From: Deltaproteobacteria bacterium GWA2_38_16
GTDB lineage: Bacteria > Bdellovibrionota > JACOXK01 > 2-02-FULL-40-11
Assembly (NCBI GenBank): GCA_001797335.1
Contig: MGPE01000002.1
Location: 112,938-176,937, forward strand
DNA length: 64,000 nucleotides
Direction: 5' to 3'
How positions within the stretch are numbered: the stretch's first letter is position 1; every line of letters begins with the position of its first letter. Positions 52,726-55,666 of the stretch are shown here, in pieces. The notes beneath the pieces are model-generated. The model ran no database searches, had not been told where the DNA came from, and was given only the letters and a program-made list of their open reading frames with translations. The position numbers were made by a program, and so were the translations under genes.

Positions 52726-53205
52726 GTGGTGACTTACAGCGCGAACCACTCTCCAAACGACCAAAGTGTAGTTGATATTGTTAAGTTTTTAAAGAAAAAT
52801 CCTACCCCGCCGGATGAGGTGTTTTTTAAAGAACTCCTAGACAGTGGCCTATCCATTCGAGCTATTGCTATGAAAATCGGTCGTTCCAAGACCTATGTGG
52901 TTAAACATTTAAAGCTTCTGGGTATGTATCAAAAGGGGCGTCGGAGCATTAAACAAGTCCCCTATGGCATGTGCCTCAAAGCAGGAAAATTAATAGAACA
53001 TCCCCAGCAGCAAAAGATCATTCAACTGATAATAAATCTCGAAAACAGTGGCTTTAATAATGAAAAAATTGCCCTAGCATTGAATGCTCAAGGTCTTCGT
53101 TCTAAAAATGGGGTCAAGTGGCAACGATGGACAGTAAAAAATATTTTAGATCGAGAAAACTCAAAATCGCACACTTCAAACATTATTAATAAGAAAATTA
53201 CTTAA
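52726..53205 (+). CDS. Recombinase-like HTH protein without a catalytic domain
   Basis: 159 residues from GTG 52726; a second GTG follows directly, and AAAGGGAGG lies 15 bases upstream, so the start is uncertain. Residues 44-70 form a helix-turn-helix (GLSIRAIAMKIGRSKTYVVKHLKLLG). Residues 85-140 resemble the 'Recombinase' domain of large serine recombinases: PYGMCLKAGKLIEHPQQQKI, then IALALNAQGLRSKNG and W-x3-TVKNIL. The N-terminal catalytic resolvase domain with its Ser is missing. It may be a stand-alone DNA-binding protein or a truncated recombinase. First gene of the accessory region. Confidence 0.65.
   Translation: MVTYSANHSPNDQSVVDIVKFLKKNPTPPDEVFFKELLDSGLSIRAIAMKIGRSKTYVVKHLKLLGMYQKGRRSIKQVPYGMCLKAGKLIEHPQQQKIIQLIINLENSGFNNEKIALALNAQGLRSKNGVKWQRWTVKNILDRENSKSHTSNIINKKIT
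52733..52748 (+). repeat. 16-bp inverted repeat, left copy
   Basis: CTTACAGCGCGAACCA, whose exact reverse complement lies at 56710-56725, nearly 4 kb away. The two copies bracket the accessory region. This copy falls inside the recombinase-like gene and encodes TYSANH. Confidence 0.6.
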
Positions 53206-53984: not shown

Positions 53985-54196
53985 TAAATCGTTCCCAATA
54001 GATTTTTTAAAGCGTCGATATCAACTTAGATCAAAGGCCCCCTCATTTTTAACGTTATTGTATTTTTAGTGACAATGCTTATTTAGTTTTGGAAATTAAA
54101 GTCTGTTGGAAGCTGACGCAACTTAACTCCCAAAATGTGAATTCTGAAAGAGTCCAGCTCCAGGATAACAAACAGCGCGTCGGTAAATTGAAAAAG

Positions 54197-54274
54197 TGGT
54201 CTCCCCATTCATGATGGGCTAAAAGCTCTATTAAGAGCTTAATAATGAGCTCTCAAACACAAAAAAGGAGACCA
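54197..54274 (+). promoter_or_regulatory. Structured leader that could hide the transposase ribosome binding site
   Basis: TGGTCTCC (54197-54204) is the exact reverse complement of GGAGACCA (54267-54274), the Shine-Dalgarno region 2 bases before the transposase ATG. Between them lie two more hairpins: CCCAT/ATGGG (54204-54218) and AAGCTCT-ATTA-AGAGCTT (54223-54240). If the outer stem forms in the mRNA, the GGAG is paired and translation is limited, as known for some other insertion sequences. It could alternatively belong to a non-coding RNA of the element. Confidence 0.55.
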
Positions 54275-54276
54275 TA

Positions 54277-55284
54277 ATGGATAATTACGATCACTATGTA
54301 GCAATAGATTGGGCCCAAAGCAATATGGCAATTGCAAGAATGACAAGGGAAGCAGAGAAAATTTCAGTGATTGATGTTCCGTCTGATATTAAGGAATTTC
54401 AATTGTATTTAGAAAGGCTCAGAGGAAAAAAGATTTTAACATTTGAAGAAACGACCACATCGCAATGGCTCTATACGGAATTAAAATCGTATGTGGATGA
54501 GGTCGTGGTGTGTGATCCTTATAGAAATAGACTTTTAAGTGAGGGACCCAAGACAGATAAGATTGATGCTGAAAAACTGGTACAGCTTCTTCGGGCAAAT
54601 TTATTAAAGCCTGTGTTCCATTCGGGAGATGAGTTTATTTATCTAAGGAAACTGGTGAGTGGCTATGAGGACATCGTGCAATTTGGGGTAAGATTTAAAA
54701 ATCAAAGGTCTTCATTATTTAGAGCCAATGGGTTGGACAAAAAAGAGAAAGATCTTAAAGAGCCTTCTGAGCAATTTGTTTTAGAAGGGATAGATCAAGG
54801 GATTGAGGCTTATGAGAAGCAGAAGAGTAGATATGAAAGAGAGTTCAATAGAATTGTCAGTAAAAATTCTATTGTAAGAAATTTAACAAGTTTACCTGGC
54901 ATAGGAAAAATAGGGGCCGTTAAGGTGGCAGCCATTGTTGTAGATCCCAAGAGGTTTAAAGATCGAGGGCAGTTTTTAAGCTACTGTGGACTGATTTGTT
55001 TAGAGAAGATCAGTGGTGGGAAAAGTTATGGGCAAAGAAAACCTCGATATCAAGGGATGCTCAAGGGGGTTTTTAAAACGGCTGCTTTGGGAGCGATTCA
55101 AGGAGAAGGTAAAAATAATTCTATGAGGCAATTTTATGATTATTTAATGAGAGAGAAAAATTATGCTGAGCATAATGCAAGGCATGCAGTTGCTAGAAGA
55201 ATTGCAGTATTGACTTTGGGTGTTTTAAAGAGTGGGAAAAAATATCATCCTAGAGGGAGATTACAATGTAACAAAACTTTGTGA
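54277..55284 (+). CDS. IS110-family transposase (DEDD recombinase)
   Basis: 335 residues. The N-terminal RuvC-like domain has YVAIDWAQSNMAIARM (D11), LTFEETTTSQWLYTEL (E57/E58) and GPKTDKIDAEKLVQLLR (D94, D97), the IS110 DEDD tetrad. The C-terminal Tnp20-type domain has LTSLPGIGKIGAVKVAAI and FLSYCGLICLEKISGGKSYGQRKPRYQ, the region that carries the catalytic Ser in this family. The frame is intact and likely functional. IS110 elements have no long terminal inverted repeats and use a bridge RNA from a non-coding end; both flanks here are non-coding and structured. Exact element ends not determined. Confidence 0.92.
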   Translation: MDNYDHYVAIDWAQSNMAIARMTREAEKISVIDVPSDIKEFQLYLERLRGKKILTFEETTTSQWLYTELKSYVDEVVVCDPYRNRLLSEGPKTDKIDAEKLVQLLRANLLKPVFHSGDEFIYLRKLVSGYEDIVQFGVRFKNQRSSLFRANGLDKKEKDLKEPSEQFVLEGIDQGIEAYEKQKSRYEREFNRIVSKNSIVRNLTSLPGIGKIGAVKVAAIVVDPKRFKDRGQFLSYCGLICLEKISGGKSYGQRKPRYQGMLKGVFKTAALGAIQGEGKNNSMRQFYDYLMREKNYAEHNARHAVARRIAVLTLGVLKSGKKYHPRGRLQCNKTL

Positions 55285-55292
55285 CAGACCTT

Positions 55293-55426
55293 CAAGACTA
55301 AAAAATTCTAACCTCAATATTGAGAAGGGATAATGGTCTTGCAGGTGAGGAGAAAGAGCTCAATCAGCATGATAACACAATAATACTTGTTGTTGATAGT
55401 TCATTTCAGTCGGTTAGCCTCTCCTC
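55293..55426 (+). ncRNA. Candidate IS110 bridge RNA (right-end structured region)
   Basis: Immediately after the transposase stop. A first stem CAAGAC (55293-55298) / GTCTTG (55336-55341) encloses two unpaired stretches and an apical CTCA-ATAT-TGAG hairpin (55313-55324). A second stem GAGGAGA (55347-55353) / TCTCCTC (55420-55426) encloses another large loop with an inner AACA...TTGTT pairing. Two consecutive stems with big internal loops are the layout of target- and donor-binding loops in IS110 bridge RNAs. A further perfect hairpin CATGGA/TCCATG follows at 55452-55469. Only pairing was seen; function is inferred. Confidence 0.4.
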
Positions 55427-55635
55427 TATATGCCTGAGATTTATTTTAGCCCATGGAGAAATATCCATGAGAGCTCAGATAGACGCATAGGGAATACTGT
55501 CAATAAAGAAAAGACTGTTAAGACGGAAAAATGAAGAGACAATGAATTTTATGTCAATATATTTGGGAGACCGTACGGCAAAAAATACAAAATTTTGCTC
55601 AATGCAGAGGTTTTTTCTTGACTTACTTTTTCATA

Positions 55636-55666
55636 GACATGCTGAGGACGAAGTCCGAAGCATCTC
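55636..55666 (-). repeat. Dispersed palindromic repeat, copy 2
   Basis: On the minus strand: GAGA-TGCT-TCG, a GAC/GTC central stem, CTC-AGCA-TGTC. Same framework as the copies at 36653 and 56438, but the variable stem is TGCT/AGCA. No coding function. Confidence 0.55.

What the first reader, a model, noticed from the sequence alone, without database searches (positions are those of the whole stretch)
55284..55500. Candidate bridge RNA to the right of the IS110 transposase
IS110 elements use a structured RNA with two internal loops to pair donor and target DNA. Directly behind this intact transposase are two successive stems (CAAGAC/GTCTTG, GAGGAGA/TCTCCTC), each enclosing a large internal loop, and a third perfect hairpin (CATGGA/TCCATG). 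If this is the bridge RNA, it sits at the right end, as reported for the IS1111 group, while the left side has a different structured leader. This would be a new programmable recombinase example in an uncultured-type lineage.
Basis: inference. Interest (0 to 1): 0.7.

Follow-up and report, generated by a model that had tools for sequence, protein, structure and literature searches.

The report
Guide RNA of an IS1111-type transposon
The sequence behind this transposase encodes a folded guide RNA whose two short stretches spell out the DNA site where the jumping element sits, so it is a real RNA-programmed insertion element of a recently discovered kind, in a bacterial lineage far from the studied examples.

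Summary
The window holds a complete 1,457-bp IS110-superfamily element (54182-55638), and the noncoding stretch behind its transposase encodes a bridge/seek RNA (core 55344-55499). Ten elements of the same clade (relatives 47-60% identical in transposase) keep the same fold with compensatory changes (92.5% of cells paired, against 36-53% when slid). At one fixed place a loop segment complements each element's own right flank (permutation p = 5e-6), and a second segment matches the left flank (p = 8e-5). A conserved ATAGAC matches the right end; in one relative both have changed to ACTACC. A segment facing the left end is more weakly supported (p = 0.03). The element sits at the outer edge of a REP-like palindrome (GTC|ATGCTGAG); about 15 intact REP units in the same genome begin with GTCAT. 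Subterminal inverted repeats, right-end RNA and guide order are those of the IS1111 type, but the transposase belongs to a long-branched lineage close to neither IS4321 nor IS621. Side findings: a leader hairpin covering the transposase ribosome-binding site, and a possible transposase-less relative carrying a hydrolase gene.

The parts
54182..55638 (+). whole insertion sequence, 1457 bp; one C (54181 or 55638) is shared by both junctions
   Evidence: ends conserved in relatives with both ends (1432-1565 bp) and flanks diverge beyond them
54277..55284 (+). intact DEDD transposase, 335 aa, PF01548 + PF02371
   Evidence: AlphaFold model matches IS621
54189..54197 (+). left subterminal inverted repeat TGAAAAAGT; the outer extension is 54182-54188
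   Evidence: sTIR differs between relatives but matches between the two ends of each
55625..55633 (+). right subterminal inverted repeat ACTTTTTCA; the outer extension is 55634-55638 (TAGAC)
   Evidence: coordinates
54198..54273 (+). leader: GGTCTCC (54198-54204) pairs with GGAGACC (54267-54273), covering the Shine-Dalgarno sequence of the transposase
   Evidence: same pairing with other sequences in L004 and L058; 0-1 of 200 shuffles as good in win, L025, L003, L004, L058
55293..55341 (+). upstream stem CAAGAC/GTCTTG of the presumed long RNA
   Evidence: inverted repeats of different sequence at the same place in most relatives
55344..55499 (+). bridge/seek RNA core
   Evidence: covariance model R1, 126.5 bits (window is a training sequence); covariation
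55347..55426 (+). target-binding loop closed by GAGGAG (55347-55352) and CTCCTC (55421-55426), inner stem GCU 55358-55360 with AGC 55416-55418
   Evidence: 5 of 6 outer pairs change on both sides among 10 sequences
55364..55372 (+). right target guide UCAGCAUGA, complementary to top strand TC|ATGCTGA at the right junction
   Evidence: permutation p=5e-6 over 10 elements
55407..55411 (+). left target guide CAGUC, same sense as left flank ..GTC (pairs with the bottom strand)
   Evidence: permutation p=8e-5 over 8 elements; in the window itself only GTC matches contiguously
55438..55445 (+). putative left-end donor guide GAUUUAUU, pairs with LE GGTAAATT (5 Watson-Crick + 3 wobble)
   Evidence: best of 158 positions in the RNA; permutation p=0.028
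55448..55475 (+). donor stem AGC (55448-55450) / GCU (55473-55475) enclosing hairpin CATGGA/TCCATG (55452-55469)
   Evidence: A-U of the stem replaced by G-C in 4 relatives
55479..55484 (+). right-end donor guide AUAGAC, same sense as RE ..ATAGAC
   Evidence: L057 has ACTACC in both; clade B variants concordant p=0.0095
55618..55623 (+). -35 box TTGACT; in the circle it lies 17 bp from TAAATT (54184-54189) of the left end
   Evidence: joined ends, same spacing in most relatives
55639..55666 (+). right flank: REP-like palindrome ATGCTGAGGACGAAGTCCGAAGCATCTC (insertion site, outside the element)
   Evidence: uninterrupted GTCAT.CTGAG REP units elsewhere in the same genome

Best explanation
It is a bridge (seek) RNA of an IS1111-type insertion sequence. 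Inferred cycle: the transposase binds the RNA. The target loop pairs its 5' guide with the right half of the target's top strand and its 3' guide with the left half of the bottom strand. The second, multiloop part pairs with the two abutted ends of the excised circle (RE sense guide AUAGAC, LE antisense guide GAUUUAUU). The complex then exchanges strands at a shared C, inserting the element at the outer edge of REP-like palindromes (GTC|ATnCTGAG). Circle formation joins TTGACT to TAAATT at 17 bp, which would drive transcription of transposase and RNA. Shown here: element ends, conserved fold, guide-to-flank matches, right-end guide covariation, REP target. Inferred from known family members: RNA production and binding, circle formation, strand exchange, promoter activity.
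For: Covariation: 92.5% of cells paired, 8 of 12 pairs change on both sides, slid controls 36-53%. Right target guide p=5e-6; left target guide p=8e-5. Natural redirection: L025 guide CGGGAATG for target CATTCCCG, L004 AAGTGGCC for GGCCACTT, L055 TTAAGAAAG for CTTTCTTAA. Donor: RE guide ATAGAC, changed together with the end to ACTACC in L057, and concordant in sister clade B (p=0.0095). Held-out test: model R1 found L118, which was not used to build it; its guide ACTGTCCAA complements its own right flank TTGGACAGT. sTIR covariation and junction promoter. REP target and uninterrupted copies in the same genome. Transposase model matches IS621 recombinase, E=5e-15, TM 0.63. Guide order (top-strand complement first) as described for IS1111 (PMC11187229).
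Against: No expression or activity data. Single copy in its genome, so no second insertion of it to compare; the neighbouring genes were not found in seven relatives, so no orthologous empty site. The left guide of the window element itself matches only GTC contiguously, which is also all that the genome's REP units share there. The left-end donor guide has modest statistics (p=0.028) and is weak in L004 and L057. L058's right guide pairs over only about 5 bases.
Confidence: 0.94

Rival explanations
1. The stretch is a structured RNA of other function, such as a terminator or a translational regulator of the transposase; the matches to the flanks are incidental.
For: A conserved leader hairpin covers the ribosome-binding site and a further hairpin lies near the right end (55578-55598), so other structures do exist in the element.
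Against: Guide-to-flank matches at a fixed place across elements with different targets, p=5e-6 and 8e-5, and a held-out case.
Confidence: 0.03
2. A target-only seekRNA: the RNA picks the target, while the element's own ends are recognised by the protein through the sTIR; the apparent donor guides are scaffold.
For: Siddiquee et al. (PMC11187229) moved elements with an 82-nt seekRNA for which they describe target matches only; the 55347-55426 loop is about that size. The left-end guide statistics are weak.
Against: RE guide and RE change together in L057 (ATAGAC to ACTACC) and in three variants of clade B.
Confidence: 0.2
3. The element is a dead relic; the RNA is conserved only by descent.
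For: Single copy; left guide match short.
Against: Transposase reads intact with KTDKIDA motif, and both ends, both sTIRs and both loops are intact.
Confidence: 0.2

Closest known systems
IS1111-family seekRNA elements (ISEc11, ISKpn4, ISPa11; Siddiquee et al. 2024, PMC11187229)
   Same: RNA downstream of transposase, subterminal inverted repeats, junction promoter, top-strand complement before bottom-strand match; ISPa11 also targets REP sequences
   Different: transposase is far from IS4321 of that family (about 18-22% identity over the aligned part); the RNA scaffold model gives no hit in the IS4321 copies of R751; perfect sTIR core 9 bp instead of the usual 11-13
IS621 / ISCro4 bridge-RNA recombinases (IS110 group; Durrant et al. 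2024, PMC11208160)
   Same: same protein fold, dual guides for target and donor, shared core at the junction, REP target
   Different: RNA at the right end instead of the left, reversed guide order, longer sTIRs, donor guides in a multiloop (as Durrant et al. report for many IS1111 members)
TIGR-Tas
   Same: distant similarity of the protein (NF052498 below its cut-off; 9mty)
   Different: no tigRNA array was looked for or seen here; this is a mobile element with recombinase domain and defined ends

Membership tests
IS110 superfamily (RNA-guided DEDD transposases) | PF01548 DEDD domain and PF02371 C-terminal domain | tested here: met
   44.2 and 54.8 bits, both above cut-off; NF033542 133 bits, just under its cut-off of 140
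[quoted passage not shown]
IS1111 family | subterminal inverted repeats (7-17 bp, usually 11-13) | tested here: met
   9 bp perfect in the window; different but matched repeats in each relative
IS1111 family | long noncoding region downstream of tnp carrying the RNA | tested here: met
   354 bp after the stop codon, 95 bp before the start codon
IS1111 family | top-strand complement 5' of bottom-strand match | tested here: met
   55364-55372 before 55407-55411
IS1111 family | extensions of 7 bp (left) and 3 bp (right) outside the sTIR | tested here: inconclusive
   7 and 5 bp with the shared C assigned to the right end, 8 and 4 with it assigned to the left end; a difference of 4, as in IS1111, follows only from the second reading
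IS1111 family | GL-P----S(t)G motif and 330-350 aa | tested here: inconclusive
   335 aa; motif GLICLEKISG has C in place of P
IS1111 family | transposase groups with IS1111-family transposases | tested here: inconclusive
   own clade with sister clade B, 100/100 support, on a long branch; only IS4321 as IS1111 reference, itself on a long branch
IS1111 family | RNA co-purifies with transposase; circular intermediate | not testable with these tools
   needs experiment

The most novel reading that the evidence does not exclude
The two clades are a deep lineage separate from both classical IS110 and IS1111, with its own RNA scaffold in which donor as well as target guides are reprogrammed in nature. 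It may also have given rise to transposase-less derivatives: L118 carries a hydrolase gene between a candidate left end and a bridge RNA whose guides match both flanks, so cargo could be moved in trans by an RNA-guided recombinase.
Probability: 0.25. Interest if true: 0.68.

Novelty: new member of a known kind. Interest (0 to 1): 0.47.

Why it matters
Programmable bridge RNAs are known from few experimentally studied elements. This adds a deeply diverged family with about a dozen members, most with defined ends, targets and guides that can be read from sequence. It supplies natural evidence that the right-end part of an IS1111-type RNA tracks the element's own end (L057, clade B), which bears on whether IS1111 RNAs read the donor as well as the target. 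Elements whose right guides read up to 8-9 bases could also serve as starting points for genome engineering tools.

Tried and rejected
Viral contigs: no relative. Rfam at gathering score: only four tRNAs in the window. Sequence search of the single protein against the PDB: nothing at 0.001; the profile did reach IS621 and ISCro4. Degenerate copies of the RNA in the own genome: none. Empty site through neighbouring genes in family members: no homologue found, so no conclusion. I considered the direct repeat GAGCTCA (in both loops) as a pairing arm with itself and rejected it: L003 has GACTCA in both, which cannot pair; each copy pairs instead with its own AGC. I considered GTC as part of the left end (a longer left extension) and rejected it because intact REP units in the same genome read GTCATnCTGAG without interruption and because the 17-bp promoter spacing then fails.

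Full report
Observation. The transposase 54277-55284 is intact, carries PF01548 and PF02371, is the only copy in its genome, and its predicted structure (mean pLDDT 83) matches the IS621 and ISCro4 recombinases (E = 5e-15 and 3e-14, TM about 0.63).

Relatives and element ends. Searches of related genomes and of genome contigs gave elements with 47-60% transposase identity: L025, L003, L004 (= L026), L055, L056 with a second copy L067, L057, and the partial L010, L058, L066. Their noncoding ends align with the window. Left ends read GGTAAATTGAAAAAG or close variants and right ends TTGACTTACTTTTTCATAGAC or close variants (L057 and L058 deviate most), and beyond these points the flanks differ. 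The window element is therefore 54182-55638, 1457 bp; relatives are 1432-1565 bp. Each element has subterminal inverted repeats that differ from element to element but match between its own two ends: TGAAAAAGT in the window, ATAGTGAAC in L004, TCACAAAAATT in L057, GGCAATTA in L058. All left flanks and all right ends finish in C, so one base is shared. Joining the ends puts TTGACT 17 bp from TAAATT, a junction promoter of the kind known from this family (PMC11187229).

Insertion site. The right flank is the palindrome ATGCTGAGGACGAAGTCCGAAGCATCTC. The same genome holds many uninterrupted units GTCAT(C/T)CTGAGG..GAAG(A/G)ATCTC (38 sites against 9 for the reversed control pattern at 3 mismatches; about 15 of the listed sites look like full REP-like palindromes). 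GTC from the left flank and ATGCTGAG from the right flank rebuild such a unit. L003 and L025 also sit at the outer edge of palindromes.

Structure. An alignment of ten RNAs with 12 pairs in three helices has 92.5% of cells paired; 8 pairs change on both sides, and sliding the partner by 1-3 columns drops pairing to 36-53%. Five of the six pairs of the target stem (GAGGAG in the window; GAGCGT, GGGAAG, GATGGA and others in relatives) vary by compensation. The first pair of the donor stem AGC/GCU becomes G-C in four sequences. An upstream stem at the place of CAAGAC/GTCTTG recurs with different sequences in most relatives.

Target guides. Right behind the motif (C/U)UCA of the 5' arm lies a segment that complements the element's own right flank: UCAGCAUGA for (TC)ATGCTGA in the window, CGGGAAUGA in L025, UUCAGGAUGA in L003, AAGUGGCC in L004, UUAAGAAAG in L055, UUUAUAUGAU in L056. 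Reassigning flanks among the ten elements never reached the observed sum in 200,000 permutations (p = 5e-6). Directly before the motif G(G/A)UUA lies a segment of the same sense as the left flank: GCUUGC in L055, UCGUC in L003, GAGAUC in L067, GCUUUC for GCCTTC in L004 (p = 8e-5). L056 and L067, two copies in one genome, are both in this set, so the left test is not on fully independent elements. [quoted passage not shown]

Donor guides. All clade members keep AUAGAC in the RNA and ATAGAC at the right end, except L057, where both read ACTACC. In the sister clade B (transposases about 34-37% identical to the window) the same scaffold is present at the same place, scoring weakly with the covariance model; there the right-end guide has three variants, all concordant with the right end (p = 0.0095), and the left target guide matches the left flank (p = 0.008). 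The clade B right target guide was only inspected by eye and is less clear. A segment facing the left end, GAUUUAUU against GGTAAATT, is the best in the RNA for six of eight elements and follows the changed left end of L058 (AACUGAUU against GGTTAGTT), but the permutation test gives only p = 0.028. The right-end donor guide is therefore supported; the left-end one is likely.

Held-out check. Model R1, run over 369 genomes, found all its training members there and two loci not used to build it. L117 is a degraded remnant. L118 has RNA and right end but no transposase; its guide ACTGTCCAA complements its own right flank TTGGACAGT. A left end upstream of it, with left guide match and inverted repeat, is equalled in only 5 of 2000 simulated sequences; between the two lies an intact alpha/beta hydrolase gene. 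Relatives of that gene are widespread in the phylum, so capture by the element versus deletion next to a host gene cannot be decided.

Membership. By ends, RNA position and guide order the element is of IS1111 type. By sequence the transposase forms, with clade B, a fully supported clade on a long branch, near neither IS4321 nor IS621, so formal IS1111 membership stays open. What it works like is clear: an IS110/IS1111 bridge-RNA recombinase.

Limits. Nothing here shows that the RNA is made or that the element moves. The left guide of the window element itself is short (GTC). L058's right guide is weak.

Noticed in passing
54198-54204 with 54267-54273: Leader hairpin GGTCTCC/GGAGACC covers the Shine-Dalgarno of the transposase; relatives keep the pairing with other sequences (L004 AGCTTTTCCC/GGGAAAAGCT, L058 ATCTCCCTCC/GGAGGGAGAT), suggesting translational control of the transposase.
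   Followed up: partly
55565-55598: GGAGACCGTA followed by a hairpin of variable sequence just inside the right end, seen by eye also in L025, L010, L055, L056 and L118; function unknown, possibly an alternative partner of the leader or a 3' boundary of the RNA.
   Followed up: no
L118:664-1811 (G316:C152): Transposase-less locus: candidate left end, intact alpha/beta hydrolase ORF 696-1505, bridge RNA 1501-1653 and right end; both guides match the flanks. Possible non-autonomous cargo element or a deletion fusion. A second right end of this type lies in the same genome (L124).
   Followed up: partly
L069, L006: Clade B copies with intact transposase whose RNA has lost its middle by a deletion apparently between the two GGCCCA repeats of the target and donor loops; L070 has lost RNA and right end.
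   Followed up: no
L117:1501-1616 (minus strand): Degraded bridge-RNA remnant without transposase nearby, donor half best kept.
   Followed up: no
window genome; 36669 in the window: Dispersed REP-like palindromes GTCAT(C/T)CTGAGGGC..GCCCGAAG(A/G)ATCTC; among the listed full units only the occupied one reads ATGCTG, the sequence that best fits the element's guide.
   Followed up: partly
52726-53205: 159-aa ORF matching the Recombinase domain (PF07508) and, weakly, a helix-turn-helix, upstream of the element.
   Followed up: no
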